DNA of 62,665 bases, taken from a virus. Where the stretch lies: IMG/VR virus record IMGVR_UViG_3300018080_000186, positions 1 through 62,665 of that record. One strand, given 5' to 3'. The position numbers and the translations under genes are program-made. The stretch's first letter is position 1; each line of letters starts with the position of its first letter. The notes below the pieces were generated by a model. That model saw only the letters and a list, made by a program, of their open reading frames with translations. It did no database searches and had not been told where the DNA came from. Shown here in pieces: positions 5,923-60,031 of the stretch.

Positions 5923-6744
5923 ATGATCAACCTCACCACAGCCTACGGTGGGTCCGGCTACGGCTCCTACGCTGGGATCTGGGATGACACCCAGACCTGG
6001 ATCCTCGAGACTCTGCCCTCGTGGATGACCGGGGTGATGCCCATCGACGTCCCCGAGGGCGAGGCGGGAGTCATCGCCATGGGGGAGATCCTCGACAGCA
6101 TCGACCCTGGCCAGAAGGTTCTGCTCTCGGCGCGGGCCCAGATGGCCCTGTGGACGATGCTCAAGAGATCTGCCGACAGCCTGGACCGGCAGTTCGTGGC
6201 CACGGCCGATGTGGGTGGCCCCACCGGCGAGACCATCCGCGGCTACCTCGAGCAGCAGAAGCAGGAGCTCATGAACCAGGCCCAGCAGCTCGTGAACCTC
6301 AGCAACGCTGCCTTCGACCGAGGGATCCCCGAGGCGAACATGGGCGAGTGGTTCCCTGAGGAGAGCTCGAGGACGGCCGGCGCCGCGGCCGTGGCCGTTT
6401 CCTCGCCGGTGATCTACCTCGTGCTCGCCATCGCCATCCCCGTGGCCATCGTCGCGGTGGCCATCGCCGGCGCCATCGTCTGGACCAAGTACCTCGACAT
6501 CGGCCAGCAGGAGCACGAGCTCGCGCTGCTCCCGGACGCGGAGGCCAAGATGGCCTACCTGAGCCGGAAGTTCGCTGCCGAAGCATCCGCGAAGAAGGAT
6601 GGATTCCCCTGGCCCTGGGTCATCGGGATCGGAGCGGCTGGCGTTGGCCTGGTGCTCCTCGTCTCCTGGGCCGAGGGAACCCTCGGGCGGTGGGTCAAGA
6701 AGCTCTCGACGGGAACCGGACGATCTCTCTACAGCATCAGGTGA
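5923..6744 (+). CDS. Two-helix YG-motif membrane protein
   Basis: A 273-residue protein with a clear N-terminal AYGGSGYG motif at residues 7-14. A helical, acidic domain follows, then membrane helices near residues 155-188 and 226-245 and a basic C-terminus. Its ribosome site is buried in the hairpin at 5896-5918. It is probably a structural membrane protein of the particle. Confidence 0.8.
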   Translation: MINLTTAYGGSGYGSYAGIWDDTQTWILETLPSWMTGVMPIDVPEGEAGVIAMGEILDSIDPGQKVLLSARAQMALWTMLKRSADSLDRQFVATADVGGPTGETIRGYLEQQKQELMNQAQQLVNLSNAAFDRGIPEANMGEWFPEESSRTAGAAAVAVSSPVIYLVLAIAIPVAIVAVAIAGAIVWTKYLDIGQQEHELALLPDAEAKMAYLSRKFAAEASAKKDGFPWPWVIGIGAAGVGLVLLVSWAEGTLGRWVKKLSTGTGRSLYSIR

Positions 6745-6747
6745 TCT

Positions 6748-7584
6748 GTGAAGTGGAACCAGAAAGCGGAGAGAGCGACCTACGGGTTCTCGATCTGGGT
6801 TGGTGCTGAAGGGGCGCCTCCTCTCCCGGATTCGTTCATCGACACGATCATCGCCATGACGGGGCCGGTGGAGGCGGAGGAGCTCGAGATCCCGTCCTAC
6901 TTCAGAGGTCCTCCCCCGACCTACATCCTCACCGGCTCCATCATGACCGACCGGGCGGCCTCGGAGCTCGCATCCATGGAGATGCCGCTGCTGCCCTGGA
7001 CGGACAAGGTGCCGATGGTGGCCGTGGATGGCCGGATGGTCCAGTTCATGATGACCACCTGGGGAGAGAAGATCGAGGCGCACCTCACCGAGATCGAGGC
7101 GATGCTCGGTGAAGGAGGTCCCCTCGCCGGGATCCTCTACGCTGCCTTCAACAACTACATCAGCGAGTACAAGTTCCTCATCAATGAAACATCGCGCCTG
7201 GTAGACGCGGCGAACGTCGCCGGTGTCCCCATCTGGCAGCAGGTCCATGCCCTCGTCGGCGGTGCGTCCGGGATGTTCATGCCGACCTACGTCATGATGC
7301 CCGCCACGGTCATCGAGGCATGGGCCCTCATGTACCTCGATGCAGGAGAGCTCCAGGGTGCGGTGCAGCTCTCGCTGATGAACGGGGAGCCAGAGGAACT
7401 CGTTCTCTACTACGCCAACGAGGTTACGCAGACCAGTCAGAGGGGCAAGGTCAGCGGTCCCATGCTCGTCGGGATCGCGGCCCTTGGAATGACCGCCGTG
7501 GGAATGTACGTGGCGGTACGCACGGGCGCAACGGGTCAAAAGACCCACACAGGAGAGGTGAGACGTGAGGGATCTGGTCAGTAA
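6748..7584 (+). CDS. Membrane-anchored late protein (GTG start)
   Basis: A 278-residue protein starting at GTG 6748, three bases after the previous stop. The long soluble domain is rich in Met and aromatic residues. A membrane helix lies near 235-258 and is followed by a polar, Thr/Gly-rich tail. The end overlaps the next gene by 20 bases. No family recognised. Confidence 0.75.
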   Translation: MKWNQKAERATYGFSIWVGAEGAPPLPDSFIDTIIAMTGPVEAEELEIPSYFRGPPPTYILTGSIMTDRAASELASMEMPLLPWTDKVPMVAVDGRMVQFMMTTWGEKIEAHLTEIEAMLGEGGPLAGILYAAFNNYISEYKFLINETSRLVDAANVAGVPIWQQVHALVGGASGMFMPTYVMMPATVIEAWALMYLDAGELQGAVQLSLMNGEPEELVLYYANEVTQTSQRGKVSGPMLVGIAALGMTAVGMYVAVRTGATGQKTHTGEVRREGSGQ

Positions 7585-8023
7585 CGTCAGGCAGAAGCTC
7601 GCAGCGAAGGTGGACACCAGGGCGAAGGCATATCGCGGGCCTCGACACAAGGCTGCGCGGACGAAGCATCCGCTGGTGAGGAAGAGCAATCGGAGGGCCA
7701 ATGCAACCCTGGCCCTTTTGAACCCCAACAGGACTCCTCGCCCTCGGGTGAGCGTCAACAAGAATCAGGTGCAGCCGAACCAGAGGATTCACACCAAGGC
7801 GAGCCCTCCCCCGAAGCTCATCACGAAGAGTGGGCGACAAAAGAAGAAGCGTTCGCTTTATGGACCGAAGGGGTACATAGGGGAGGCTGAGGTCTTGGCT
7901 GTCAAGAACGCACACTTCAGCAGGGGAGGGGATGCGAGGTTCAAGGTCAGGATCGAGGGAAAGTGTGAAGGATGGGCCAAGGTGACAGGGGCCGGCAATC
8001 TGAAACTCATCTCTCGGAAGTAG
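7565..8023 (+). CDS. Basic late protein, possible DNA- or RNA-binding
   Basis: A 152-residue protein starting at GTG 7565 behind GAGAGGTGAG. The first 100 residues are rich in Lys/Arg/Pro/Asn and probably disordered; the last 50 look like a small beta domain. Strong positive charge in a particle gene cluster suggests contact with packaged nucleic acid. Confidence 0.7.
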   Translation: MRDLVSNVRQKLAAKVDTRAKAYRGPRHKAARTKHPLVRKSNRRANATLALLNPNRTPRPRVSVNKNQVQPNQRIHTKASPPPKLITKSGRQKKKRSLYGPKGYIGEAEVLAVKNAHFSRGGDARFKVRIEGKCEGWAKVTGAGNLKLISRK

Positions 8024-8035
8024 AAGGAGAACACC

Positions 8036-8401
8036 ATGGCCGCAGAAATCATGACAGACATCGGTGCGAACGTTTCGATTGCGGAGATCCAGGACATCGC
8101 CGCCGGCGGATTCTCGGAGGTCAGGATCACGAACCCCGGGATCATGTCCATCGCCGCGAAGGTCCACCCGCCGCCTCTGGCCGAGCCGAACCCGGGAGTC
8201 TACGAGCTCACCGGGATCGTGACGCAGCTCACGAACCAGACGACGAGCGGATGGCACGTCGAGAACTTCGCCTGGGTTGTGGACCCGAACGGCAAGCCGA
8301 TCGCGATCGAGTTCGAGCTCCACAACGACGCGCCCGCCAACCCCGGGGACACCCTCTCCGTGAGGTTGACGGCGAAGCGCCACTTCAGCCCCACGAGGTA
8401 G
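8036..8401 (+). CDS. Small late beta-rich protein
   Basis: A 121-residue soluble protein after a GAAGGAG site. It has alternating beta-type stretches and no membrane segment. It may be a minor coat protein by position. Not recognised. Confidence 0.75.
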   Translation: MAAEIMTDIGANVSIAEIQDIAAGGFSEVRITNPGIMSIAAKVHPPPLAEPNPGVYELTGIVTQLTNQTTSGWHVENFAWVVDPNGKPIAIEFELHNDAPANPGDTLSVRLTAKRHFSPTR

Positions 8402-8404
8402 CCG

Positions 8405-8671
8405 ATGGAGCTCGTTGCCTACGGCGGGTACGGGGATGTGCAGGACGAGATCCCTGATGTCGCACTGGAGCGCCAACAGCTCTACGAGGAGCGCCTCGCT
8501 CGTGCGACCGAGGCGGCCATGGTCGCCGCATCGCAGGCCGAGATCAACGCAGCCCTCGCCGCCCAGGCCCAGGAGACCAATCACTCCATCATCATGGGGT
8601 TCGTGGGAACAGGGGCCGTGGGTATCATGGTGTGGGCCCTGAGCATGGCCTTCACTCATCGCAAGAGGTGA
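8405..8671 (+). CDS. Tail-anchored YGGYG protein
   Basis: An 88-residue protein that shows the late-protein architecture in its simplest form: AYGGYG at residues 5-10, an Ala/Glu-rich helix, a single membrane helix near 63-83 and a terminal HRKR. Confidence 0.8.
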   Translation: MELVAYGGYGDVQDEIPDVALERQQLYEERLARATEAAMVAASQAEINAALAAQAQETNHSIIMGFVGTGAVGIMVWALSMAFTHRKR

Positions 8672-8674
8672 ACG

Positions 8675-10798
8675 ATGTCCAAGCGGACTGGTCCATTCGG
8701 CATCATCCCCCCAGGGGTTCCCGTCGAGAGAGGTCCCTACCCGGAGACCATCGAGTGGCGGCACACGCACGAGACCACGGACAACCCCGAGTTGTTCATG
8801 GGATGGCTCTCGGACATCCAGGCGTCCCTCGCCCTCGTCGGGCTCTCCATGGTGTCGCAGACCACGGATGGTCGCACAGTCTGGACCGCGGCCGGTCACA
8901 AGGTCGCGGAGCTCGTCACCACCATGGACGGAAAGAAGGGAACCGTCTACGCACGCCCCATCGGGGGGCAGGCCCCGTCCCCGGGGATCCGTGGAAGGGT
9001 CGCTGCAGAGGAGCTGAGGAGGAGCTCGCAGTGGCTCGGCTACGGGCAGAGGACGGCCACGTTGCGTCCAGGCGGAGCAACCCACGTCCCGGCCGAGGAT
9101 CCGACCGACGCGCCGACCTGGGAGTCCACTGAGGTCGGCACCGTCACCGCGGTGTCCACGGCCACGGGGGACGTGACTCTCCGCGCACCGACATGGAGCG
9201 CGGCGACTGGGAAGGCGATGCCGCTGTTCCCGATCCCCGAGGACCTCTATCAGCAGGCCCTGGCAGATCTGAAGGCTGGAAAACTGAAGTACTACGGAGG
9301 CATCGGCCTCGGCGTCCTCGGGGCCCTTGGTGGTGTCGCGACCGCCATGATGAGAAAGAGTCTCGGAACAGCCGGAACGGTGGCCGCTGGAGCCGCGTCC
9401 GTCGGTGGTGTCGGCGGAGGCAGCCTCCTCGCCGTGAACGGGAAGAAGTCGCAGGAAGAGGCCGTGCTCGTCATCGAGCAGTACGAAATGCAGCAGGACT
9501 CGAGTCGGGGCACTTCGGAGATAGAGATCAGTGAGGAGGTCGAGGTTCTGGTACCGGATACCGATTCTGTTCAGGCAGTCGCCGGCGGATCAGCCTTCCG
9601 CGTCCTTCCGGCCGGTGAGATCGTCAACGGCATCGAGTCGCTTCCCGGGGATGCAAAGGTGACCATTCGCGATCTGGAGGTTCCAAGCACGACGTCTCAT
9701 TTCGACTACGATGCCGACGACATCTACGCGAATGTTTACTGGGATGGCGACCGCTCGCTGCTCTTCAGCAACATCCCCAGGGAAGGCCAACTGCTCATTC
9801 GCATCGGAGTCCACAGCAACGGAAACGTTGGGTATGGAGTCGAGGGACATGAGGGGTTTCAGCGGAAGAAGGGGAAGCAGGCCCCGGCATTTCTCGACGG
9901 TGCAATCCTTGCCAACGATCTCATTCAGCAGGGGGATGTGGGAGTGTTTGCGAACGATCTGTTCGCCAAGATCGGGCTCACCTACAACTACGGACTGTGC
10001 ATCGGGGATCGCGGCGGTGGAGCGCAGGATGGGTTCGGCCTTGCCCTGAAGAACTACAGGAGCCCCTGGGAGGTGATCTCTCACTGGGCCGAGCGCACCA
10101 TTGGCATCCTCGTCAAGATTGTCAGCGCATACGTCGGGGCGCAGGCGGCAACGAGTACCATCGGTGAGATGGTTTTCACCGCAGCGATGACTGGCGTGGA
10201 TGCCCTGCAGGTCCTTGCGACGGGAGGATCTCTCAGCGATCTGAAAAACATCGGACTGGGCCTGGCCAAGAAAATGGGGTTGCGACTGTTCCTCGAGTAC
10301 GGACGGGATTTCTGCATCAATGCCAACGAGAAAATACGGGCCGGGTTCTTGGAGCATCTCGGAAGGGAGTCTTCCCTGTACCAGTTCGCCAACTCGTTCT
10401 ACGAAACCATCCAGGACTACAAGAGCTCACTGATGGGCACCGTGGGTGGAATGGACATCTGGGACGAGCTCAAGTACATCCCGCAGTCGATGGGGGTGGC
10501 CGATCATGGTCTTCTGGAGAGAGTCAACGACGTCTGGAGAGAGAAGCAGGCGCTGGCGATCCAGACCTACGAGGACACGATTGTGGCCTATGGGACCTCG
10601 ATGCCCGCAAAGCAGTTGAACTACATCGAGGCGATGAAGCAGAAAATCACTGACAAGATGGGGAGACTGGTCAACGCGCACGAGATGATGATCGCGTCCA
10701 ACCTCAACGGGATGAACGAGAGTTTTCACGGTTACAGCAAGACCCTTATCGACGCTGGAGCACAGTACGACCAGGTCAGGATCGTCCTGTACCGATAG
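8675..10798 (+). CDS. Largest virion protein, with central membrane segments
   Basis: A 707-residue protein, the longest in the genome. Residues 1-190 are soluble and contain a GYGQ motif near 120. Gly-rich hydrophobic segments lie near 206-225 and 230-252. The long remainder is mixed beta/alpha and ends in helices. From about base 9500 the codons become visibly less GC-biased than in the first third, suggesting the two parts have different histories. Candidate roles include a vertex, DNA-delivery or penton-complex protein, but nothing in the sequence decides this. Confidence 0.75.
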   Translation: MSKRTGPFGIIPPGVPVERGPYPETIEWRHTHETTDNPELFMGWLSDIQASLALVGLSMVSQTTDGRTVWTAAGHKVAELVTTMDGKKGTVYARPIGGQAPSPGIRGRVAAEELRRSSQWLGYGQRTATLRPGGATHVPAEDPTDAPTWESTEVGTVTAVSTATGDVTLRAPTWSAATGKAMPLFPIPEDLYQQALADLKAGKLKYYGGIGLGVLGALGGVATAMMRKSLGTAGTVAAGAASVGGVGGGSLLAVNGKKSQEEAVLVIEQYEMQQDSSRGTSEIEISEEVEVLVPDTDSVQAVAGGSAFRVLPAGEIVNGIESLPGDAKVTIRDLEVPSTTSHFDYDADDIYANVYWDGDRSLLFSNIPREGQLLIRIGVHSNGNVGYGVEGHEGFQRKKGKQAPAFLDGAILANDLIQQGDVGVFANDLFAKIGLTYNYGLCIGDRGGGAQDGFGLALKNYRSPWEVISHWAERTIGILVKIVSAYVGAQAATSTIGEMVFTAAMTGVDALQVLATGGSLSDLKNIGLGLAKKMGLRLFLEYGRDFCINANEKIRAGFLEHLGRESSLYQFANSFYETIQDYKSSLMGTVGGMDIWDELKYIPQSMGVADHGLLERVNDVWREKQALAIQTYEDTIVAYGTSMPAKQLNYIEAMKQKITDKMGRLVNAHEMMIASNLNGMNESFHGYSKTLIDAGAQYDQVRIVLYR

Positions 10799-10807
10799 GA
10801 GAGGAAC

Positions 10808-11221
10808 ATGAGAAGCAACCTGATGACAGCCTACGGAGCTCCTCCTGGAATCCCGGAGGGCTACGAGCTCGAGACGCTGACCACTCCCTATGTCCACGAG
10901 GACGTGAGTGACGCGGTCGACTTCGCGGTGGAGATCCAGAACCTGTCGGACGAGCGTGGGTACGTGGTGCAGGGCATCGAGCCGGTCCAGGATCCCACGA
11001 CGGGCCTCTGGGGGGTCTACGTGGAGTACTGGAGGCCGCCCGTTGGGGCAATCCGTTCGGGAGAGGTGACCCAGGAGCCCGCGGAGATCCTTCGCACCCC
11101 GAGCAACACGACCGAGAAGAAGGGCTGGCCGTGGTACGCCTACGCTGGCATCGGACTGGGAGCCCTCGCCGTCCTGGGCGGTGGCTACCTCATCTACAAG
11201 GGAAGCAAGAAGAGGAGATGA
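10808..11221 (+). CDS. Tail-anchored late protein, AYGAP motif
   Basis: A 137-residue protein with TAYGAP at residues 7-12, a compact soluble domain, a membrane helix near residues 108-130 and a terminal KGSKKRR. The same layout recurs in the next three genes, which look like a diverged family of anchors. Confidence 0.8.
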   Translation: MRSNLMTAYGAPPGIPEGYELETLTTPYVHEDVSDAVDFAVEIQNLSDERGYVVQGIEPVQDPTTGLWGVYVEYWRPPVGAIRSGEVTQEPAEILRTPSNTTEKKGWPWYAYAGIGLGALAVLGGGYLIYKGSKKRR

Positions 11222-11223
11222 CC

Positions 11224-11820
11224 ATGAGAACGGCAGCGTTCCAGAGGAACATGAGGCAGGCTGGAATCCCGTCGCTGTACAGGGGCTACGGCCGTCAGAA
11301 CATGATGAGCTACGACGGGTACGGAGCGTGCAGCGGCTGCGGCCTCGGCCAGGAGAACGGGGAGGTCCCATTCGACCCCAACGCCCCCACCGAGGAGGAG
11401 ATCGCGGCGATGATGGCCGAGCTCCCGCCTCACATCATCGCGGATCCGAAGAAGGGAGTCCTGCTCTACCTGCAGAGTGCGGTGGCTCTCGACAGGGGGA
11501 CCGCAGAGGCGATCAAGCTCGCCGTTCAGCAGGCACTCGAGCACCACGACGTCATGGGTGTCGAGCGAATCGACATCGTCCAGCAGGAAGGCGTCTACTA
11601 CGTCGAGGCCCTGTTCTGGGGCGACATCGACGAGGACATGCTGCAGGGCGGGATCAACGAGTTCGAGATCGCGGAGGGCATCCAGGGCTTCGTGCGACTC
11701 GCCACCGAGGAGGACCGCAAGGTCGAGACGCCGAAGTGGCTGATCTACGGCGGCATCGGCGCGGGCGTGGTGGCCCTGGGTCTCGTGGGCCTGGTCATCT
11801 GGCGTCCCTGGAAGAAGTAG
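11224..11820 (+). CDS. Tail-anchored late protein with two YG motifs
   Basis: A 198-residue protein with YRGYG near residues 19-23 and YDGYGACSGCG near 30-40, including a CxxC pair. A soluble domain rich in Glu/Ile follows, then a membrane helix near 174-194 and a terminal PWKK. Confidence 0.8.
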   Translation: MRTAAFQRNMRQAGIPSLYRGYGRQNMMSYDGYGACSGCGLGQENGEVPFDPNAPTEEEIAAMMAELPPHIIADPKKGVLLYLQSAVALDRGTAEAIKLAVQQALEHHDVMGVERIDIVQQEGVYYVEALFWGDIDEDMLQGGINEFEIAEGIQGFVRLATEEDRKVETPKWLIYGGIGAGVVALGLVGLVIWRPWKK

Positions 11821-11829
11821 AGGTCTGAG

Positions 11830-12177
11830 ATGAGGTACGGAGCAAGCATCGACGCAGTGGCCTACGGGCAGATGGACGAGCGCCCCGCAGGACTGGATCC
11901 CTCGTGGGTCCTGAGGACCGAGCGGGACCCGACCGTGAGCGACAGCTACGACGTCGTGGCCGAGCGGATCGCGGCCATGGAGGAGAGGCTGGTCTCGAAG
12001 GGGTGGTACCCGCACGGGTACACCATCCCAGAGAACCCGGACGGGACCTACGGCCCTGCGGAGGTCCAGTATTGGGGTCCTCCCGAGGAGAAGGGTCCGA
12101 ACTGGGGTCTGATCGTCGGGGCTGGCGCGGCCGGCCTCTCGGTCATCGGGATCGTCCTGGCCATCGTGGAGAGCTGA
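11830..12177 (+). CDS. Tail-anchored late protein, VAYGQ motif
   Basis: A 115-residue protein with RYGAS and VAYGQ within the first 15 residues, a soluble domain and a C-terminal membrane helix ending in VES. Unlike its relatives it lacks a basic tail. Confidence 0.8.
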   Translation: MRYGASIDAVAYGQMDERPAGLDPSWVLRTERDPTVSDSYDVVAERIAAMEERLVSKGWYPHGYTIPENPDGTYGPAEVQYWGPPEEKGPNWGLIVGAGAAGLSVIGIVLAIVES

Positions 12178-12190
12178 GAGGAGGAGCACC

Positions 12191-12829
12191 GTGAAAATAG
12201 TCATGAACGGTCACAACAGCCAGATCCTGACCCCATCGTGGCCCGGGATGAGAGGATACGGCACCGATCCGGTCATCAATCACGGTGCCCCTCAGTCCCC
12301 CCAGGCGGGACCGGACGGGACCTTCAGGCCCGACTGGGGGTCCAGGGGAGCCACGGCCATCCCCAAGAGGCCCACGAGCAGGCCCGAGAGGGGCCTCAGC
12401 GCGTCCGTGGAGGCCCCTGGGGCCACCGAGACGTCCATGGGCACCTCCGACGCCGAGCCGACGCCTCAGGAGATGCTGGAGGCCGTCGCGGAGACGATGG
12501 AGACCATGGAGGAGGGCATCGACCAGGCCACGGCCATCCTCCAGGAGGCGCAGCAGGAGCTCCCCGAGGACGCGGCCGGGGATCAGCCCACGGTCACGGC
12601 GACCGAGCACCCGTACGATGTGCCGAACCCCGAGGTGCAGGCCACCGCCAGCGACGTCCCGAGCGGGGAGTACGTGGGCGGGACGGAGATCGGTCCCGAG
12701 GCCGGCAACGGGGTCACCTACCCCGACACCGAGGAGGAGAAGAGCAGGTGGCCCCTCTACGTGGGCGTCGGGGCCGGGATCGGGCTCCTGGGACTGCTCG
12801 GCCTGGCCGCCTGGGGAGCGAGCAAGTGA
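12191..12829 (+). CDS. Tail-anchored late protein with acidic low-complexity stalk
   Basis: A 212-residue protein. RGYGTD lies near residues 18-23. Residues 30-180 are rich in Pro, Ala, Thr and Glu and form a probable extended stalk, and one membrane helix near 188-208 ends in ASK. It starts at GTG 12191 behind GAGGAG. Confidence 0.75.
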   Translation: MKIVMNGHNSQILTPSWPGMRGYGTDPVINHGAPQSPQAGPDGTFRPDWGSRGATAIPKRPTSRPERGLSASVEAPGATETSMGTSDAEPTPQEMLEAVAETMETMEEGIDQATAILQEAQQELPEDAAGDQPTVTATEHPYDVPNPEVQATASDVPSGEYVGGTEIGPEAGNGVTYPDTEEEKSRWPLYVGVGAGIGLLGLLGLAAWGASK

Positions 12830-12832
12830 TCC

Positions 12833-13093
12833 ATGGCTCGGAAGCGGACCAGGAAGCGCAAGCTCTGCCCCGACGGGGTGGTGAGCGAGTGCGTCTACTG
12901 CGTCGAGCTCCGGGGCGACATCTGGAAGGTACTCGATCCGAGTGGAGCGACAATCGAGGAGTCGAAGAGCCAGCGCAAGGCCATGGGCATTGCGGACAAC
13001 TACATCATCTCGTGCGAGGCATCGAGATCGGGGTACGGGCAGAAGCAGAAGCGAAGGGATTTCAACCATCGGCGGGGGCCGTTCAGGTGGTGA
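12833..13093 (+). CDS. Small basic protein with SGYG motif
   Basis: An 86-residue protein with a Lys/Arg-rich N-terminus, two Cys near residues 20-23 and an SGYGQKQ motif near residue 62 followed by a basic end. There is no membrane helix. Possibly nucleic-acid-binding. Confidence 0.7.
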   Translation: MARKRTRKRKLCPDGVVSECVYCVELRGDIWKVLDPSGATIEESKSQRKAMGIADNYIISCEASRSGYGQKQKRRDFNHRRGPFRW

Positions 13094-13102
13094 GGTGATG
13101 AC

Positions 13103-13342
13103 GTGGTCAAGCTCTCGTGGCAGATGACGATCCTGTACTCAATCGCAATGATCATCATGGGCACCGTGATCGTGCTCGGGTTCTACAACGAGCAGGCAGC
13201 GGAGATGAGCAAGTATGCCTTCGGGCTCATCGCGGCCCTGCTCGGGTACGGGGGAGGGAAACTGCAGACGGTCTGGGAGATCAAGAAAGGCAACAACGGA
13301 GGAAGCGATGCACGACCTGCACAGCCCACTGAACGGGAGTGA
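13103..13342 (+). CDS. Two-helix small membrane protein (holin-like)
   Basis: A 79-residue protein from GTG 13103 with helices near residues 7-26 and 36-52 and a charged C-terminus. Size and topology fit a class II holin, and a lipoprotein and a transglycosylase follow downstream. It could equally be a virion membrane protein like its neighbours. Confidence 0.6.
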   Translation: MVKLSWQMTILYSIAMIIMGTVIVLGFYNEQAAEMSKYAFGLIAALLGYGGGKLQTVWEIKKGNNGGSDARPAQPTERE

Positions 13343-14066: not shown

Positions 14067-14067
14067 G

Positions 14068-14514
14068 ATGCCGCCGAAGTGTACCAGGATCGACCGCGTC
14101 GAGCTCTGCACGACCACCACCGATGTCTGCGTCGAAGGTCCGATCACGAGCAGCGATCAGGTCTACCGGGTCTGCAAGGAGCTGATGATCTGCAACCGGA
14201 TGCAGGAGGAGTTCTGGGTCCTGTGCATCAGTCCCCGCGGCGACATCGTGAGCTACGCCCCCGTGACCAAGGGGACGACCGATGAGACCATGGTCATCCC
14301 CGCGGACGTGATGAGGATCGTTCTCGCCTCTGGGGTTCGCTCCATGATCCTGATCCACAACCACCCGAGCGGAGATCCCCAGCCGTCCGCGCAGGACCGC
14401 CACCTCACCATGAGGATGATGGAGGCGGCGAAGATGGTGGGGTTCACGGTGCTCGATCACATCATCGTGGCCGAGAGCAGCTACATCAGCTTTCGAGACG
14501 AGGGGATGATGTGA
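14068..14514 (+). CDS. RadC-like JAMM-domain protein
   Basis: A 148-residue protein matching the RadC/MPN+ family: HNHPSGDP with His97 and His99, and Asp110 completing the H-x-H-x10-D metal site. Only the JAMM domain is present; the N-terminal HhH region of host RadC is missing. JAMM proteins are zinc peptidases or deubiquitinase-like, but the function of bacterial RadC is unsettled. Its place among virion genes is notable. It overlaps the next gene by one base (TGATG). Confidence 0.8.
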   Translation: MPPKCTRIDRVELCTTTTDVCVEGPITSSDQVYRVCKELMICNRMQEEFWVLCISPRGDIVSYAPVTKGTTDETMVIPADVMRIVLASGVRSMILIHNHPSGDPQPSAQDRHLTMRMMEAAKMVGFTVLDHIIVAESSYISFRDEGMM

Positions 14515-15191
14515 TGGCGAGGCGGTTCGACTACTCGACGCTCTACCGCGAGGAGCCGCTCTCGTTCAGAGGATACGGCCAGCCTCAGCGCACGGTTCCG
14601 TGCGGCGAGACTCAGGTGAAGCCCACGCCGAAGAGGAGGGCGCCGGTACCGAAGAGCTACAGGGGGCTCTCGGCCGTCGAGCTCAAGCACTGCGATCTGC
14701 CGGACCACTACTTCGACCGCGAGAACCTGGCCTGGGGCACGCAGGTGGAGTTCGAGCACACCGATGACCCCGCAGTGGCGAAGTGCATCGCGAAGGCCCA
14801 TCTGCTCGAGCGCCCCGACTACTACGATCTGCTCGAGAAGTACGTGGAGGGACACGGCATGAGAGGACTCGAACGCAGACCCACCGGAGAGATCCGTCGG
14901 CCACGCGGGATGGGCAAGAAGCCGAGCTGCAGCCCGGTCGATGCCCAGGCCATGGCAAAGAAGCACCCGAAGACCTTCAAGGTGCCGAGCAAGGCCAAGC
15001 TCAAGAAGATCAAGAAGGGCGACACGGTGAAGATCACGGTGGCCGACGAGAGGTTCTGGGTCACGGTCACGAGCGTGAAGGGCAACAAGGTCTGCGGAAA
15101 GGTCGACAACGAGACCTCGGGCGAATGCAAGAAGTTCACCTACGGCAAGAAGGTGTGCTTCAAGAAGAAGAACATCTACGACGTCTGGTGA
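14514..15191 (+). CDS. YG-motif protein with DUF5661-like region
   Basis: A 225-residue protein. FRGYG lies near residues 17-21. The middle (about 70-110) carries the EFEHT...A..IA..HLLERPDYY pattern I associate with the phage domain DUF5661. The last 60 residues form a basic small beta domain with four Cys. There is no membrane helix. Function unknown. Confidence 0.7.
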   Translation: MARRFDYSTLYREEPLSFRGYGQPQRTVPCGETQVKPTPKRRAPVPKSYRGLSAVELKHCDLPDHYFDRENLAWGTQVEFEHTDDPAVAKCIAKAHLLERPDYYDLLEKYVEGHGMRGLERRPTGEIRRPRGMGKKPSCSPVDAQAMAKKHPKTFKVPSKAKLKKIKKGDTVKITVADERFWVTVTSVKGNKVCGKVDNETSGECKKFTYGKKVCFKKKNIYDVW

Positions 15192-15195
15192 GAGA

Positions 15196-16089: not shown

Positions 16090-16895
16090 GCGGGTACTCG
16101 GGATCGTCCGGCAAGGACAGGTGGCCATCGGTCAAGGCCGCGATCAAGGCCGGCAAGAGCTCCACGGCGCACAAGAGGATCAGCAACTGCGTTCCCAAGA
16201 CGCTGCAGTGGACCTCCCTGTTCAACCAGTACCGCAAGGACATCCCTCTGGCCTTCATGGTCGTCAAGGCGGCCTTCGAGTCGTGCGGGAAGGCGGATGC
16301 CCTGACGAAGAGCGGGAAGGACATCGGTCTGTTCCAGCTCTTTCCCATCCACTTCGAGAGAAACGGGCTGACCCCGACGCAGGGACTCGATCCGGCCAAC
16401 AACACCAGGATCTTCGTGAAGGTGCTCGATGGGAGAGCAGCCTCGTTCGAGAAGAGCCACGGGTCCTGGTTCCCCAACGGCCGGGACTGGTCCTTCTGGG
16501 GCATCATGTGGCTCACCGCGGGCATCGGACCCGGGGCGACCCGTCACCTGCTCAACCAGGTCAGCCAGGGTCCTGGGGCCTTCAACAAAATCGTCTCGTT
16601 CGTGAGCTCCCACCCGGGATGGATGGAGGAGTACGCGCAGGACGCGAAGTGGGGAGTGCAGAGCGGCCGGCTCGTCGCGTTCCGGGTCATGGTGGCCTGG
16701 GACGTGGTGGGGGAGATCCGAAAGCTCGAGGCGAGCGGCGAGCTCGAGGAGTACGTCACGCAACCCGTTCCTGGGGTACCTCGTGGAGGTGACCTGGGGC
16801 GCATCTTCGGCATCACCCTCGCGGTCCTCGGATCTGCGAGTTCAGCAGCTCTGGTGGGATGGACCGCCTACCAGGGCCTGAGGAGGAAGAGATGA
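16086..16895 (+). CDS. Membrane-anchored lytic transglycosylase (SLT-like)
   Basis: A 269-residue protein. Glu65 in AAFESCG, followed by DIGLFQL and LDPANN, matches the SLT lysozyme-like fold, with Glu as the expected acid. The N-terminus carries SGYSGSSG. A C-terminal membrane helix near 242-262 ends in RRKR. A tail-anchored muralytic enzyme within the virion operon fits local cell-wall penetration during genome delivery. Confidence 0.75.
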   Translation: MSGYSGSSGKDRWPSVKAAIKAGKSSTAHKRISNCVPKTLQWTSLFNQYRKDIPLAFMVVKAAFESCGKADALTKSGKDIGLFQLFPIHFERNGLTPTQGLDPANNTRIFVKVLDGRAASFEKSHGSWFPNGRDWSFWGIMWLTAGIGPGATRHLLNQVSQGPGAFNKIVSFVSSHPGWMEEYAQDAKWGVQSGRLVAFRVMVAWDVVGEIRKLEASGELEEYVTQPVPGVPRGGDLGRIFGITLAVLGSASSAALVGWTAYQGLRRKR

Positions 16896-17605
16896 GATTC
16901 GGAGCATTCAGACCCCGACGGCCGGCACTGCCTCGCCGCCCCGGCTACTACAACAAGGATCGCGATGGATTCCCCACCAATCCGGTGATGGGAGTGCCCG
17001 AGATCCCGGGGGGCCAGGTCTCATACGGGCCCCACCCCGACGCCATGTGGCCGACCGAAGTGCTTCCTCCCGGCCCTGGGGTTCCGTGCCCGCCGGGGAT
17101 GCAGTGGACCTCGGCCGACCGCAAGTGCACACCGATGCAGCCTCAGTACTCGGGCCTCGGCGCCATCGCGAGAACGGCCCCGCATCAGGGGATGGCCACC
17201 ATGCCGAACTACTGGGCCCGCAACGCCTACAACCGCCAGGCCAACGTCAGGGCCTTCGGCGGGTACGGTGGATACCTGAGCCCCAACGTGGGCAAGGAGT
17301 GGCAGTGGGACTCGTTCGCGGTCGCTCTCGCGGCCATGGCGGCCACCGCCTCGGTGGGCCTCGCCGGCGCGGCCATTGCTCACCCCCAGAAGAAGGGTGG
17401 AGGACGCGGGAAGATGTCACGCACCATCATCCCGTTCGTGCTCCCGAGTCTGGGGGCCGGCGTGATCGCCTACCTGCTCCGATGGAACATGAACAAGGGA
17501 GAGCCCTGCAACGGGGATCGGGTGGATCAGTTGCCGGGACCGAGCACCGTGGGCCGCACTCGCACCGGAACGGTGGACACGGCCTACGAGCCAGAACTGA
17601 TCTGA
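16892..17605 (+). CDS. YGGYGGY membrane protein, two helices
   Basis: A 237-residue protein. A Pro-rich N-terminal half contains a CPPGMQW loop, and FGGYGGY sits near residues 124-130. Hydrophobic helices near 148-168 and 182-200 flank a Lys/Gly-rich loop. It sits between the transglycosylase and the spike gene and is probably structural. Confidence 0.75.
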   Translation: MRFGAFRPRRPALPRRPGYYNKDRDGFPTNPVMGVPEIPGGQVSYGPHPDAMWPTEVLPPGPGVPCPPGMQWTSADRKCTPMQPQYSGLGAIARTAPHQGMATMPNYWARNAYNRQANVRAFGGYGGYLSPNVGKEWQWDSFAVALAAMAATASVGLAGAAIAHPQKKGGGRGKMSRTIIPFVLPSLGAGVIAYLLRWNMNKGEPCNGDRVDQLPGPSTVGRTRTGTVDTAYEPELI

Positions 17606-17615
17606 GGAGGACAAC

Positions 17616-19259
17616 ATGAGCGCACCAGTCGTAATCTATTCCGATGACGTCGAGAGTTCACCGTTCGTGGTGACCAAGCTCTACGTCGACATCGTCAACG
17701 GCGACGACAACAACGACGGCCTGTCCTGGGCCACGGCGAAGCAGACGGACGCGGTCTTCGACCTGGTCCCCAACGGGGGCTGGTGTGCCGTCTACGTCAG
17801 GAGCCACGGTGGTACCTTCGTCATCGACAAGCGGACGCTGCCCTACGCCCAGTACGAGGGGCAGCTCTCGATCATCGGTGACGATGCGTGGGCCGAGACC
17901 GACTTCGGCGTGGTGACCAACTTCGCACACTTCGGTGGGAAGTACTTCCGCGATGAGATCACCATCGCGTGGGACTCGCATGTCCCCAGTGACGCCACGG
18001 ATCGTCAGCAGTTCATCCGCTTCACCGACGACGACGGGAACGAGTGGATCTGGAAGGTGTACGAGTACATGGGCGCGAACGTCTACGAGGCGTTCTCCGG
18101 GTTCGGCAACCCCAACATGGCCGCGGGAAACGAGGAGATCCACCTCGTCAAGCCGACGACGACCATCGCCCCTGCTCTCGTCACGCAGGCGGGAACCTTC
18201 GCGACGAACGGACGTGTCGGATTCATCGGATGCGTGCTGGCCTCCCCGGGGCAGAACGGGTTCCGCGAGTTCGACACCACGGCCTGCCACATCGACGCGA
18301 CGGCGCACAACGCTGCTTTCGCATGGGGCAGCAAGGGGTTCTGCACGAAGCTGTTCACCGACGACCTGGGCGTTCTCGCTCCGCAACTCTACATCCCTCG
18401 GCAACTGCTCGAGGGGACTGTCATGGAGAAAACGCAGGGGGGGGCCTACGGTGCTGCGAGCTACCTGGAGATGTCGGGTGCAGGCTACGCCTACTTCGCG
18501 GACGACAACCCGGGATCGTACAACCTCAGCCGCTGCAACGGATTGGTGTATGAGGGCGGGAATATCGAGTTCTGGAACGCGGTCCACACCACGTTCAACT
18601 ACGCCAGGGGAGTCGAGGACGGCGTGAGCGGATTCCGAGCTCTGGCCAGGTCACTCGTGGACACGAACGGCGTCAACTGCGACAAGGTCACCGCAGAGGC
18701 CGACGGCTACATCCGCGTGCAGACGCTGATGACCCCGGAGATCGACATCATCGAGGGGTGGCTGGGATCGAGCGGTGGCGTGAAGACCATCGACCTGGTG
18801 ACGAGCAACCCGACCCGAGACTCCCACTGCCTCAGGGTTCACCGAGGTGGCGTGACCGGACAGATCGAGATCAAGGGTGGATACTCGACCTCGGGTGTTG
18901 CTCTCCCGGCCACCAGGATCGACGGAATCTGCGAGGGACTCGAGCTGAACTTCGATGACATGGACAGGGGCGACGGTCCCGTGAACCACATCCGAGGCGG
19001 GGCTCGCGTCGAACTGATCAAGTGCGTGGGTGACAACCTCAACCTGGGAGTGGGTGGCACGAACGTCGGATTGCAGATCGAGGACCAGACCTACGTCGAG
19101 GCCGACGACGACGGCACCGGCAACCTCACCGCCACTGGTGCGGATGGGGACGTGCTGCTCGGCGCAAGCGCCGCGCCCATCGCGTGGCCAGCCCCCCCGA
19201 GCTACAACACGGACCTCGCTGCGGTTGCTCCGCAGATGTCGGTCCTCAAGATCGTGTAG
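17616..19259 (+). CDS. Beta-helix spike / receptor-binding protein
   Basis: A 547-residue protein with GAGGAG before the start. Residues 22-47 carry the signature LYVDIVNGDDNNDGLSWATA, typical of the entry to right-handed parallel beta-helix domains (pectate-lyase fold) in phage tailspikes. The remainder is Asn/Gly/Thr-rich with regular strands. In the absence of tail genes this is the best candidate for the host-recognition spike. Confidence 0.7.
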   Translation: MSAPVVIYSDDVESSPFVVTKLYVDIVNGDDNNDGLSWATAKQTDAVFDLVPNGGWCAVYVRSHGGTFVIDKRTLPYAQYEGQLSIIGDDAWAETDFGVVTNFAHFGGKYFRDEITIAWDSHVPSDATDRQQFIRFTDDDGNEWIWKVYEYMGANVYEAFSGFGNPNMAAGNEEIHLVKPTTTIAPALVTQAGTFATNGRVGFIGCVLASPGQNGFREFDTTACHIDATAHNAAFAWGSKGFCTKLFTDDLGVLAPQLYIPRQLLEGTVMEKTQGGAYGAASYLEMSGAGYAYFADDNPGSYNLSRCNGLVYEGGNIEFWNAVHTTFNYARGVEDGVSGFRALARSLVDTNGVNCDKVTAEADGYIRVQTLMTPEIDIIEGWLGSSGGVKTIDLVTSNPTRDSHCLRVHRGGVTGQIEIKGGYSTSGVALPATRIDGICEGLELNFDDMDRGDGPVNHIRGGARVELIKCVGDNLNLGVGGTNVGLQIEDQTYVEADDDGTGNLTATGADGDVLLGASAAPIAWPAPPSYNTDLAAVAPQMSVLKIV

Positions 19260-19268
19260 GAGGAGAAG

Positions 19269-19514
19269 ATGCCGTACGGACAGTACACGAAGAAGATCCA
19301 GGTCACGGTCGCTGCTGGAGCAACGGACAGCATTGCCAGTCCGATGACCGGCAGGATCCCCGACGAGGTCATGGTGAAGACCGAATCGGGAGATGCGAAA
19401 CTGCAGCTCTCGAACTGGGATCCGGCCAACAACACGTTCGACGCACACAACCCCGGAGCGATGTCCAACACCAGTACTCTGATCCTGGTGTACCGTCACT
19501 CCATCCCCAAGTGA
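19269..19514 (+). CDS. Small beta-rich protein next to the spike
   Basis: An 81-residue soluble protein starting MPYGQY, a Tyr-Gly motif at the extreme N-terminus. It is probably a beta-sandwich accessory to the spike. Good GAGGAG site. Not recognised. Confidence 0.75.
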   Translation: MPYGQYTKKIQVTVAAGATDSIASPMTGRIPDEVMVKTESGDAKLQLSNWDPANNTFDAHNPGAMSNTSTLILVYRHSIPK

Positions 19515-19522
19515 GGTGAACC

Positions 19523-20107
19523 ATGGCGGGAAAGAGGAAGATCACGATGGAGCTCATCGACTCCTCGCTCAAGGACGATCTGATCGACATCGGAGGACGT
19601 CTCGGGATCGAGGACGAGATCCACTACAAGGACACGAAGCCCGAGATCTACGAGAAGGTGGTGAAGGCCTTCAAGAAGCAGCAGCGTGCCGAGAAGAAGG
19701 GCAAGTCGAAGCCGAAGGCGAAGTCCAAGGCCTCTCCGACGACACCCGAGGTCCCGGAGTACATCGAGACGCCGACGGGTCTGGTTCCGACGACGCCCCC
19801 CTCGGCCCCTGCGGATTCGGATGCTGAGGAGGCACCCGAGGTGGTGCCGGGGACCATCGAGAAGGTGGACGAGCCCGTCGGGCCTCCTGTGCGCCGCCTC
19901 GATCCCGGCACTCACTACTTCGTCAACGACGAGGAGAGGACGAAGCAGTACTTCGTGAAGGCGGCGAGGGGGATGTTCGTCAAGCAGGGCGTCATCGATT
20001 TCGCTCTGAAGACGGCCAAGCGCCGGGGCGTCGGGAGCTTCAAGGCCCACGCCAGGTACCGCGGTCGCATCGCGCAGTTCAAGTTCGTCATCAGGGTGGT
20101 GAAGTAG
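19523..20107 (+). CDS. Late protein with charged linker and basic C-terminal domain
   Basis: A 194-residue protein: a short acidic/helical N-domain, a Lys/Ala/Pro-rich linker from about 52 to 115, and a basic C-terminal domain that ends in FVIRVVK. Not recognised. Confidence 0.75.
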   Translation: MAGKRKITMELIDSSLKDDLIDIGGRLGIEDEIHYKDTKPEIYEKVVKAFKKQQRAEKKGKSKPKAKSKASPTTPEVPEYIETPTGLVPTTPPSAPADSDAEEAPEVVPGTIEKVDEPVGPPVRRLDPGTHYFVNDEERTKQYFVKAARGMFVKQGVIDFALKTAKRRGVGSFKAHARYRGRIAQFKFVIRVVK

Positions 20108-20108
20108 A

Positions 20109-20423
20109 ATGGCTGACTTCACATGCACCAAGCGAGGGGCGAGGATGTTCGAGTTTCGGGATGCATCGATCCCGAACAACGGAGGATCGCGTACCTTCGC
20201 GTGTGTGGGGATCCCCGAAGATCCTTCTTCTCCCCAGTTCATCCCCCCGTTGCTGTCGATTCTCGGCACCAACGTCCATTTCCAGACCTACTACCAGAAC
20301 GGCGTGACATGGGATCCGCTCACTCGCACGGTCACATTCGAGCTCTTCAACACGACCCCTGGCGCAGGCGAGGATGGATTCTTGGACTTCGTCGTCTGGT
20401 TCCCCCACACGAAGGTCAGGTGA
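20109..20423 (+). CDS. Small late beta-rich protein
   Basis: A 104-residue soluble protein starting one base after the previous stop. It has alternating strands and a Gly-rich turn near residues 88-92. Function unknown. Confidence 0.7.
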   Translation: MADFTCTKRGARMFEFRDASIPNNGGSRTFACVGIPEDPSSPQFIPPLLSILGTNVHFQTYYQNGVTWDPLTRTVTFELFNTTPGAGEDGFLDFVVWFPHTKVR

Positions 20424-20427
20424 TGGG

Positions 20428-21453
20428 ATGGGGGCTCGAGTCTACAGTCGGTTTGGCCGGCGGGCCCGAGCCCCCTCTCGTTCCCTGGGCTTGATGTACG
20501 AGGACGAGGCCTTCGATAAGGCCGCTCGGGAGTGGGGCACCACCGACAATCCATACGACGCCGGATACATCCTGCCGGACGGATCCCTGCTGGACATGAG
20601 TGAGGGAGGTGGCGAGGGGAGAACTCTGGATCACAGGGCCGTCCAGGGTATCCTGCAGCGCGATTACCCACGTCAGGGTGCCATGGTCGAGTTCATGAGT
20701 CGTGGGGCCATCAGGATGCACGCCAGCCCCCGGGAGAGAGCCCTGTTCCTCGACGTGGTCCGGCGACCCACCGATGCCCAGGACTCCACGATCCGACGTC
20801 TCGTGCCATGGTTCGAGGAGGTCCGTGCGGAGATCACCAACCCGGACACTGGGTACGTCGAGGTCTGGGACCACTGGGGGGATCCTGGTGGCAAGAGACT
20901 GCACCCGCGGCCCGTCATCATGTTCCTGGACGAGCGCGGGATGCGCGGCCTCGGTGCTCGAGGACGAGCCGACTGGATCATCGTCGCTAGGGACCCGATC
21001 ACCGGAGAGCAGGTGACATGGGAGACGAGCTCTCATTCCGATGCGAGACGGAGGGCCGAACGGATCCGCAGGGAGCAGTGGCACGCAGATACGGAGTATG
21101 GCCGAGAGGCGGTCAGGTATCAGGATGTGAGGATCATCAGCAAGAGCCAAGGCCATATGCTCGACGGCCTCTCCGGGTTCCCGAAGGTGACCAGGTCCAC
21201 CCGCAAGGGCAAGAAGTTCAAGGTCAGGGTGTGCAGGAAGATCCGAGGAGAGCAGCGGTGCAAGACCATCCACTTCGGTGCGACGGGGTATCGCATCAAG
21301 CCGGGGACGAAGGCAGGTGACAGCTACTGCGCCCGCAGCGCCGCCCAGCAGGGAGCGGATGACCCGTTCAGCGCCGCGTACTGGTCCAGGCGGATGTGGG
21401 GTTGCGAGGGCAAGAAGAGCGTCAAGGGCAAGGCACTGAAGGTGGGAAAATGA
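20428..21453 (+). CDS. Two-domain late protein with FGATGY basic C-terminal domain
   Basis: A 341-residue protein; ATG 20428 directly follows the previous stop. Residues 45-75 hold GYILPDGSLLDMSEGGG...LDHR, a pattern I recall from phage polyvalent-type proteins. The last 90 residues are Lys/Arg-rich with four Cys and a HFGATGY...DSYCARS...YWSRRMWGC segment like the small basic FGA/YW domains of capsid-associated proteins in some large membrane viruses. That resemblance is recall, not alignment. Confidence 0.65.
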   Translation: MGARVYSRFGRRARAPSRSLGLMYEDEAFDKAAREWGTTDNPYDAGYILPDGSLLDMSEGGGEGRTLDHRAVQGILQRDYPRQGAMVEFMSRGAIRMHASPRERALFLDVVRRPTDAQDSTIRRLVPWFEEVRAEITNPDTGYVEVWDHWGDPGGKRLHPRPVIMFLDERGMRGLGARGRADWIIVARDPITGEQVTWETSSHSDARRRAERIRREQWHADTEYGREAVRYQDVRIISKSQGHMLDGLSGFPKVTRSTRKGKKFKVRVCRKIRGEQRCKTIHFGATGYRIKPGTKAGDSYCARSAAQQGADDPFSAAYWSRRMWGCEGKKSVKGKALKVGK

Positions 21454-21830
21454 AGAGACGACCCAGGAGGATCTCAGGACGGATGACACGGCCCCGGGGC
21501 GTCGGTGTGGGCGTGGACCCGGCGCGGTGCGACCAGATCCACTGGACGCAGATCGCCGGGGAGATCTCCGAGCTCAAGCGCATCTACACGGGTCTGCCGC
21601 TCCCGGGCAAGCCCAAGGTCGCGAAGAGGTGCATGTGGGCCCTCGAGACGGCCCTGGGCAAGTACGAGGAGGCGGAGACATACCGGGAGCGCGGGGAGTG
21701 CGAGCTCGCCGGAGAGTTCGGCCTGGACGCCATCCGCTACCATGGGATCTTCCTGCACTGCCAGATGAACCAGCCCAAGGCCAAGAAGAAGAAGCCGAAG
21801 AAGCGCAAGACGCGCAAGAAGAAGAGGTGA
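21450..21830 (+). CDS. Small helical protein with Lys-rich tail
   Basis: A 126-residue protein starting in an ATGA overlap. Arg-rich N-terminus, a helical centre with several Cys, and a Lys/Arg/Pro tail of about 20 residues. Possibly binds nucleic acid inside the particle. Confidence 0.75.
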   Translation: MKRRPRRISGRMTRPRGVGVGVDPARCDQIHWTQIAGEISELKRIYTGLPLPGKPKVAKRCMWALETALGKYEEAETYRERGECELAGEFGLDAIRYHGIFLHCQMNQPKAKKKKPKKRKTRKKKR

Positions 21831-21833
21831 GTC

Positions 21834-22145
21834 ATGATGGAAGCTGGAGCACAGATCGTTCCGAGGTCCTCCGAGGGTGTGGGAGCTCTGGCCTACCCTG
21901 GATTCGACCCTGTCCACCTGAACCCGGGTGAGCACGGGGTCGTGTCCCCGTCGGCAGCGTTTGGGAGTGACAAGCTCCTGAAGGCCTACGGTGGGTACGG
22001 GGAGATCAGCGACGGCGCCGCCGTGGCGGCTGCGGTGGGCATCGGGGTCGCGGCGCTGGTCGTGACCGTGGGATCCTACGCGCTGCTCGCCTACGTCATC
22101 GGATGGGGCGCGAGCAAGGGCTGGAAGAAGGCGAAGGGCAAGTGA
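21834..22145 (+). CDS. Tail-anchored AYGGYG protein
   Basis: A 103-residue protein; AYGGYG near residues 51-56 is followed directly by a membrane helix (about 62-90) and a KKAKGK end. Here the motif lies next to the helix rather than at the N-terminus. Confidence 0.8.
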   Translation: MMEAGAQIVPRSSEGVGALAYPGFDPVHLNPGEHGVVSPSAAFGSDKLLKAYGGYGEISDGAAVAAAVGIGVAALVVTVGSYALLAYVIGWGASKGWKKAKGK

Positions 22146-22168
22146 GACGCCGATACCCAGAGGAACCC

Positions 22169-22363
22169 ATGACGGTGGCCTACGGGCCCCCTGACGCTCG
22201 TGAGGGCCTTGGGGCACCCGGAGTCGAGGAGGAGTTCGAGGAGGCCGTCATCGAGGGCTCAGTGGTGCCCAGGGCCATCGCCATCGGCGGCGGCATCGTC
22301 TCGGGGGTCGTCATGTTCGGATCCATCGCCTACGCGATCGTCAAGAGGCCGAAGAGGCGGTGA
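22169..22363 (+). CDS. Tiny tail-anchored protein, VAYGPP motif
   Basis: A 64-residue protein: VAYGPP at residues 3-8, an acidic segment, a membrane helix near 37-58 and a VKRPKRR end. ATG 22169 is preferred over GTG 22142 because AGAGGA precedes it. Confidence 0.75.
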   Translation: MTVAYGPPDAREGLGAPGVEEEFEEAVIEGSVVPRAIAIGGGIVSGVVMFGSIAYAIVKRPKRR

Positions 22364-59962: not shown

Positions 59963-60023
59963 GGTATACCTTAAGGTAAGACGGTCCCGGCCCGACCGGC
60001 ATTCCGAAAACCCGTGGTATAGA
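59963..60023 (+). promoter_or_regulatory. Late operon control region
   Basis: GGTATACC (59963-59970) overlaps the perfect 12-bp palindrome TACCTTAAGGTA (59967-59978). A TATAGA -10-like box lies at 60018-60023, but no good -35 is present at the right distance, so an activator at the palindrome is likely. It drives the late unit that crosses the contig ends. Confidence 0.5.
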
Positions 60024-60031
60024 TGCCTTGT

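What the first reader, a model, noticed from the sequence alone, without database searches (positions are those of the whole stretch)
5923..22363. A recurrent Tyr-Gly motif marks many late proteins
YGGYG, SGYG, RGYG or AYG[GAPQ] occurs in at least 14 late proteins (62490/2, 5387, 5923, 8405, 10808, 11224, 11830, 12191, 12833, 14514, 16892, 21834, 22169, 60652, 61928). It is often near the N-terminus and lies in otherwise unrelated proteins. It is nearly absent from early genes. It could be a virion-targeting tag, a protease site or an assembly sticker.
Basis: seen in the sequence. Interest (0 to 1): 0.9.

Follow-up and report, generated by a model that had tools for sequence, protein, structure and literature searches.

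The report
Candidate protease-site motif in virion proteins
A short tyrosine/leucine-glycine motif really is concentrated in the late proteins of this uncultured bacterial virus and of distant relatives that carry a LapG-like cysteine protease gene, and the best guess is that it marks where the virus cuts its own particle proteins during assembly, much as adenovirus does.

Summary
Of all tripeptides, GYG and GLG are the two most over-represented in the late proteome. The fuller motif is [LMFY]-x-G-[YLF]-G: 19 sites outside hydrophobic stretches against 1.5 expected. Synonymous codons vary freely, so it is a protein signal and not a DNA element. I found about a dozen distant relatives. All but a provirus encode a transglutaminase-fold cysteine peptidase with invariant Cys-His-Asp; its closest solved relative is the protease LapG. 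In the window that gene (60023-60655) lies beside a polyprotein-like gene with four motif sites. Two relatives (L031, L032) show the same extended motif 11- to 13-fold enriched; another clade uses GFG/GLG; Ile/Val controls are flat. A close relative lacking the peptidase (a Gemmatimonadota provirus) shows no significant enrichment. Best explanation: recognition site of a virus-coded maturation protease, functionally like adenovirus (M/I/L)xGx|G sites but with an unrelated enzyme. Cleavage is inferred, not shown; an N-terminal docking or 'sticker' peptide is the main rival. The enrichment is not universal among peptidase-bearing relatives, and single sites turn over.

The parts
60023..60655 (+). 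Transglutaminase-fold cysteine peptidase (NGEDCDGHT, FVHVF, IPMDTT), candidate maturation protease; the start may be 60116
   Evidence: Cys, His and Asp invariant in all homologues aligned; two homologues pass the Pfam Transglut_core cut-off; profile hit to LapG 4u65 E=3e-5; Foldseek top hit LapG 4fgo, then transglutaminases, TglA, TgpA. The window copy alone gives no Pfam hit.
60652..61737 (+). Polyprotein-like late protein: two weakly similar domains separated by four motif sites (QYSGYG|A 60799-60807, ALRGLG|A 61177-61185, PMRGLG|R 61558-61566, MLMGLG|A 61660-61668)
   Evidence: overlaps the peptidase gene end by 4 bases
62490..62665 (+). Virion membrane protein running across the record ends (continues to 610): N-terminal YKGYG (62535-62543) and YSGYG (62565-62573) before the membrane segment, C-terminal MSGLG (437-445) and GLG (452-460)
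   Evidence: homologous proteins G001 29602 and G002 16686 carry motifs on both sides of the same core
5923..6744 (+). Late membrane protein with N-terminal AYGGSGYG (sites at 5941-5949 and 5956-5964)
8405..8671 (+). Small tail-anchored protein, N-terminal AYGGYG (8417-8434)
10808..11221 (+). Tail-anchored protein, N-terminal TAYGA (AYG 10829-10837)
11224..11820 (+). Tail-anchored protein with three N-terminal sites: YRGYG (11284-11292), YDGYG (11317-11325), CGLG (11341-11349)
11830..12177 (+). Tail-anchored protein, N-terminal VAYGQ (AYG 11860-11868)
12191..12829 (+). Tail-anchored protein, MRGYG site 12254-12262
12833..13093 (+). Small basic protein, SGYG site 13031-13039
14514..15191 (+). 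DUF5661-containing protein; FRGYG site 14571-14579 and further RGLS/RGLE/RGMG-like stretches flanking the domain
16892..17605 (+). Membrane protein with YSGLG (17153-17161) and FGGYG (17261-17269)
20494..21453 (+). Late protein, MRGLG site 20947-20955
21834..22145 (+). Small membrane protein, AYGGYG at 21984-22001
22169..22363 (+). Small tail-anchored protein, N-terminal VAYGP (22178-22186) and EGLG (22205-22213)
22380..23213 (+). Late protein with VNGLG (22425-22433) and LNGLG (22773-22781) between segments
61928..62260 (+). Basic late protein, PGLG (61970-61978) and LSGYG (62006-62014)
   Evidence: similarly placed protein of G001 has TLSGM at the same place (read by eye)
62260..62451 (+). 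Basic late protein, TRGLG (62368-62376)
671..1357 (+). Most conserved late protein shared with relatives, inferred major capsid protein (capsid role not demonstrated)
   Evidence: 24-35% identity to relatives; no Pfam or PDB sequence hit; AF2 model unreliable, pLDDT 42
59203..59898 (+). Caspase-like protein (HFFCHG ... TFYSCDVG), an alternative protease candidate
   Evidence: sequence motifs; only a sub-threshold DUF4347 hit; no homologue found in G001, G002, G006 or the provirus

Best explanation
The motif, in full [LMFY]-x-G-[YL]-G in this virus, with a shorter N-terminal variant [AG]-[FYL]-G in tail-anchored virion proteins, is the recognition site of a virus-encoded maturation protease. 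The most likely enzyme is the transglutaminase-fold cysteine peptidase at 60023-60655. It would cut precursor particle proteins during or after assembly: trimming N-terminal leaders from membrane-anchored proteins and splitting multi-domain precursors such as the 60652 protein. Shown here: the motif, its late-gene specificity, its protein-level origin, its recurrence in several distant relatives, and the peptidase family. Inferred: that the peptidase cuts at the motif, the exact bond (before or after the last Gly), and the role in maturation.
For: (1) Late-specific enrichment, first and second of all tripeptides. (2) Extended motif with hydrophobic residue two before GxG, 21/33 sites, p=1e-4 at that one of 11 positions; absent in early proteins; 19 vs 1.5 expected outside hydrophobic stretches. 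(3) Same extended motif in two other peptidase-bearing lineages: L031 8 vs 0.7, L032 9 vs 0.7; G[IVM]G and [IV]xG[IV] controls flat; early sets flat. The G002 clade has G[FL]G enriched in late proteins only. (4) N-terminal [FYL]G in tail-anchored late proteins: in seven peptidase-bearing loci whose gene lists I had not read when the pattern was set, 30 vs 11.1. (5) The peptidase has invariant Cys-His-Asp, and its closest solved relative is LapG, a protease that cuts an adhesin near its N-terminus (PMC3032545). (6) Sites lie between domains or between domain and membrane anchor; four lie in the 60652 protein next to the peptidase gene, and in L031/L032 a GLG lies between the peptidase's own membrane segment and its catalytic domain. 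(7) A provirus whose putative capsid protein is 73% identical to G002's lacks the peptidase and shows no significant enrichment (14 vs 16.2 for G[LFY]G). (8) P1 Gly with hydrophobic P2 or P4 is a usual preference of papain-fold and viral Cys proteases (established knowledge); compare adenovirus IVGL|G (PMC4246237).
Against: No cleavage data. Enrichment of the internal motif is weak or absent in other peptidase-bearing relatives (L034, L039, L042; L033, L035, L036 and L041 only marginal), and G001/L037/L038 show only LxGL without the last Gly. Individual sites are not better conserved than background between G002-clade orthologues (26/58 kept; controls 57% and 42%). Only one peptidase-lacking genome was available, and it keeps some GLG (11 vs 7.1 in the 20 kb around its capsid gene). 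Some motifs lie 3-5 residues from the N-terminus, leaving little to remove. The fold model of the peptidase is of modest quality (pLDDT 63) and no Foldseek match has E below 0.001. TGase-fold enzymes can also cross-link or hydrolyse other bonds.
Confidence: 0.48

Rival explanations
1. The motif is a docking or sticker peptide: short aromatic/Leu-Gly segments on the flexible tails of membrane and core proteins that bind the capsid or each other (as GLFG/FG or [GS]Y[GS] stickers do), and are not cut.
For: Many sites are close to the N-terminus of tail-anchored proteins; several copies per protein, including repeated GFGxxTIDP units in G002; F, L, Y and W exchange at the same site.
Against: The [LMFY] at -2 and the exact G-x-G frame fit a recognition cleft better than loose stickers; single sites exist between folded domains; the provirus with a 73% identical putative capsid protein should keep a capsid-docking motif but shows no significant enrichment.
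Confidence: 0.28
2. The motif is a cleavage site, but for another enzyme: the caspase-like protein at 59203-59898, another unrecognised viral peptidase, or a host protease.
For: The caspase-like gene is only two genes upstream of the 60652 polyprotein-like gene; one relative (G006) encodes a C39 peptidase, a family that cuts after Gly-Gly leaders.
Against: No homologue of the caspase-like gene was found in G001, G002, G006 or the provirus; caspase-fold enzymes mostly prefer Asp/Arg/Lys at P1; C39 was seen in one relative only.
Confidence: 0.1
3. It is only flexible Gly-linker or membrane-segment composition without a specific function.
For: Late proteins are Gly-richer (10.6% vs 7.5%) and rich in membrane anchors.
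Against: Expected values come from each protein's own composition; membrane segments were masked; GG and G[IVM]G are not enriched and only certain middle residues are.
Confidence: 0.09
4. It is a by-product of a repeated DNA element or of recent gene duplication.
For: Neighbouring small tail-anchored genes look alike in layout.
Against: 20 different 9-mers among 35 sites, and no out-of-frame or antisense copies of the GYG 9-mer in late genes; the carrier proteins are otherwise unrelated.
Confidence: 0.02

Closest known systems
Adenovirus maturation protease AVP (family C5) and its (M/I/L)xGx|G and (M/I/L)xGG|x sites
   Same: A short hydrophobic-x-G-x-G motif spread over membrane-active, core and scaffold-like virion precursors; window sites such as LSGYG, MRGLG, LRGLG, LNGLG, MSGLG fit the formal consensus; basic core-like proteins among the carriers.
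   Different: AVP is an Ulp1-like enzyme; here the candidate is transglutaminase-fold. Tyr/Leu is fixed at the fourth position, Tyr/Phe are common at the first, xGG sites are not enriched, and the host is a bacterium.
LapG, bacterial transglutaminase-like cysteine proteinase (BTLCP, DUF920)
   Same: Same fold class and Cys-His-Asp triad; nearest solved sequence and structure match; cuts a large surface protein near its N-terminus (PMC3032545).
   Different: LapG cuts between two Ala and is regulated by LapD/c-di-GMP; the viral proteins share only remote similarity and have putative Gly-centred sites in many substrates.
Peptidase C39 and double-glycine leaders
   Same: N-terminal leaders ending in Gly; Cys peptidase; G006 encodes one.
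   Different: Leader consensus and enzyme differ; the motif here is also internal; no C39 was recognised in the window.
Tailless icosahedral viruses with two single jelly-roll capsid proteins and internal membrane (Sphaerolipoviridae, Simuloviridae, P23-77-like)
   Same: Many small membrane-anchored late proteins, no tail or terminase recognised.
   Different: 62.5 kb circular genome; no sequence match of the putative capsid protein to Pfam or PDB; jelly-roll fold not demonstrated.

Membership tests
Transglutaminase-fold cysteine peptidases (Transglut_core / LapG-like) | Cys-His-Asp catalytic triad in the order C, H, D | tested here: met
   DCD / H / D-T(S)-T invariant across the homologues aligned
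Transglutaminase-fold cysteine peptidases (Transglut_core / LapG-like) | Profile or fold similarity | tested here: met
   PF01841 above cut-off in two homologues; family profile hits LapG 4u65 E=3e-5; Foldseek LapG/TGases top but E>=0.02; the window protein alone has no Pfam hit
Transglutaminase-fold cysteine peptidases (Transglut_core / LapG-like) | Proteolytic activity | not testable with these tools
   needs biochemistry
Adenovirus protease (C5, AVP) family | Ulp1-like fold with AVP sequence similarity | tested here: not met
   no Pfam, PHROGs or PDB match of that kind for the late proteins searched; the candidate enzyme is of another fold; only the site resembles it
Adenovirus protease (C5, AVP) family | (M/I/L)xGx|G substrate motif in several virion precursors | tested here: inconclusive
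   formal match for part of the sites; strict [MIL]xGxG 20 vs 13.9, p=0.056; enrichment lies in [LMFY]xG[YLF]G
Peptidase C39 double-glycine system | C39 peptidase gene | tested here: not met
   no C39 signature among predicted window proteins; present in G006 only
Single/double jelly-roll tailless viruses | Jelly-roll major capsid protein | tested here: inconclusive
   AF2 model pLDDT 42, no sequence hits

The most novel reading that the evidence does not exclude
A widespread, undescribed lineage of bacterial viruses (some integrated in Gemmatimonadota) matures its particles by adenovirus-like multi-site proteolysis with a LapG-like transglutaminase-fold protease; the site drifts between lineages (GYG, GLG, GFG, LxGL), presumably with the enzyme, and decays where the enzyme is lost.
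Probability: 0.36. Interest if true: 0.82.

Novelty: new variant of a known kind. Interest (0 to 1): 0.66.

Why it matters
If true, an enzyme class not, to my knowledge, described as a virion maturation protease would do the job that Ulp1-like proteases do in adenoviruses, in bacterial viruses with many membrane-anchored virion proteins. It gives a concrete handle (site, enzyme, substrates) on a virus lineage whose late proteins match essentially nothing in Pfam, PHROGs or the PDB, and lets late genes of related contigs be recognised by a short motif.

Tried and rejected
Close-relative scans with the window's capsid-like, peptidase and DnaB proteins found nothing, nor did phage-collection searches. 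One early scan used an alignment in which two rows were hand-made variants of a 78-residue peptidase stretch, only to widen the search pattern; it found nothing. A second such set for the capsid protein was generated as text but not used; I stopped that approach and used an IUPAC pattern instead, which found the first relative. The strict adenovirus consensus [MIL]xGxG was tested and is not significant by itself. Site-by-site conservation in the G002 clade is not above background. The capsid model was too poor to search. Proteins with no Pfam/PHROGs hits. Literature searches found no description of such a system in the held library.
Full report
What was checked. The window is a circular virus record (62,542 unique bases plus a 123-base terminal repeat) with a late block from about 59.2 kb through the ends to 23.2 kb and an early block of small genes including DnaB and a tyrosine recombinase. 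Two listed proteins (5387, 16892) fit only loosely.

The real motif. Counting every tripeptide against each protein's own composition, GYG and GLG are the two most over-represented in the late proteins. Looking at neighbours, the residue two before the first Gly is hydrophobic (mostly Y, L, M) in 21 of 33 sites outside membrane segments, p=1e-4 for that position out of 11 examined, and not in early proteins. The full motif [LMFY]xG[LFY]G occurs 19 times outside hydrophobic stretches against 1.5 expected; the same patterns with Ile/Val/Met are at expectation. This window figure is partly circular, because the motif was read from the same sites; the test is in the relatives. The codons vary (20 different 9-mers in 35 sites), and the GYG-coding 9-mer is never found out of frame or on the other strand of late genes, so selection acts on protein.

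Where it sits. A shorter form, [TV]AYG or AYGGYG, is within 4-14 residues of the start of tail-anchored or other membrane proteins (5923, 8405, 10808, 11830, 22169). The 60652 protein has two weakly similar domains (E=0.016 in a direct comparison) with sites before, between and after them, like a polyprotein. The gene starts four bases before the end of the peptidase gene.

Relatives. An IUPAC pattern from the conserved late protein at 671 (putative major capsid protein) found a first relative, and alignments then found others: G001, the G002 clade (G002, L013, L014, G006), a provirus in a Gemmatimonadota chromosome (CP070815.1), and twelve more peptidase loci of which one is G001 again. All but the provirus encode a transglutaminase-fold protein with invariant Cys, His and Asp. 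Since most of these loci were fetched by the peptidase, its presence in them is no independent evidence; the independent cases are those found by the capsid-like protein (G001, L013, L014, L015/G006, and the provirus without it). Pfam Transglut_core is passed by two members; the family profile finds LapG (4u65, E=3e-5), and a modest AF2 model matches LapG and transglutaminases best.

Motif against peptidase. Late-only enrichment of G[FL]G is seen in G002, G006, L013, L014, and of the window's own extended motif in L031 (8 vs 0.7) and L032 (9 vs 0.7). G001, L037 and L038 show LxGL (2.1- to 3.6-fold, weak after masking). L041 has MRGLG, LRGMG, LRGLG and LRGLS near the starts of late proteins next to its peptidase (by eye). 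L034, L039 and L042 show no internal signal; L033, L035 and L036 are marginal, but tail-anchored late proteins there begin with an [FYL]G (2.6- to 5.8-fold). Counting that N-terminal feature only in loci whose gene lists I had not read when the pattern was set gives 30 versus 11.1, p=2e-6. The provirus, close to G002 by capsid-like protein (73%), lacks the peptidase by profile search of the whole genome and of all six frames of the provirus, and its late proteins are at expectation (14 vs 16.2). This is one genome, and near its capsid gene some GLG sites remain (11 vs 7.1), so I treat it as suggestive.

Mechanism. The simplest reading is that the motif marks cleavage by the peptidase: Gly at P1 (or P1 and P1') with a hydrophobic residue in a subsite is ordinary for papain-fold and viral Cys proteases, and it mirrors adenovirus sites such as IVGL|G (PMC4246237). 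Inter-domain placement, several sites in one precursor, and a GLG between membrane anchor and catalytic domain of the peptidase itself in L031/L032 suit it. Against it: no cleavage data, turnover of single sites at background rate, patchy distribution, and some motifs so near the N-terminus that little would be removed. A docking or sticker peptide remains a serious rival.

Novelty. Maturation proteolysis is a known kind; a transglutaminase-fold, LapG-like enzyme as its agent in bacterial viruses with membrane-anchored virion proteins is, as far as the held literature shows, undescribed. It is therefore a new variant of a known kind, conditional on the mechanism.

Noticed in passing
L017 (CP070815.1, about 3.65-3.72 Mb): Provirus of this virus lineage integrated in a Gemmatimonadota MAG chromosome; it lacks the peptidase. 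This points to a host phylum for the G002 clade.
   Followed up: partly
window 1-62665: No recognisable terminase, portal, tail or packaging ATPase: DnaB holds the only clear ATPase Walker A (one further match is a GTRGLGKS stretch in the basic 62260 protein). G002 has a HerA-like gene at 76326, read by eye.
   Followed up: partly
window 62260-62451 and provirus (L017-oriented coordinates) 28734-28904: Two small basic proteins from distant members share a near-identical 18-residue segment (KGRCLKWSKGRSRCMKR-like, 94%) although the rest of the genomes has diverged strongly.
   Followed up: no
window 59203-59898: Caspase-like protein (HFFCHG...FYSCDVG) in the late block, without homologues in the relatives examined.
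   Followed up: partly
L025:6841-7413 (G006): Peptidase C39 gene (E=2e-15) in a relative, a family known for Gly-Gly leader cleavage.
   Followed up: partly
L031:7302-8081 and L032:9869-10585: Peptidase homologues with an N-terminal membrane segment followed by a GLG motif before the catalytic domain, as if released by self-cleavage.
   Followed up: no
window 23.3-58.8 kb: Early proteins are strongly enriched in C..CG / CP.C zinc-finger-like motifs (C..CG 22 vs 0.9 expected).
   Followed up: no
window 24815-25450: Lipoprotein-like Asp/Cys-rich protein (DCDEDGWTPGTGDCCDDHPGVHPGA) resembling surface lipoproteins of Myxococcota-like bacteria (from memory, not tested); possible host hint.
   Followed up: no
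L036: QGA repeats (20 vs 4.3) in late proteins of one peptidase-bearing relative, possibly its own version of a repeated motif.
   Followed up: no
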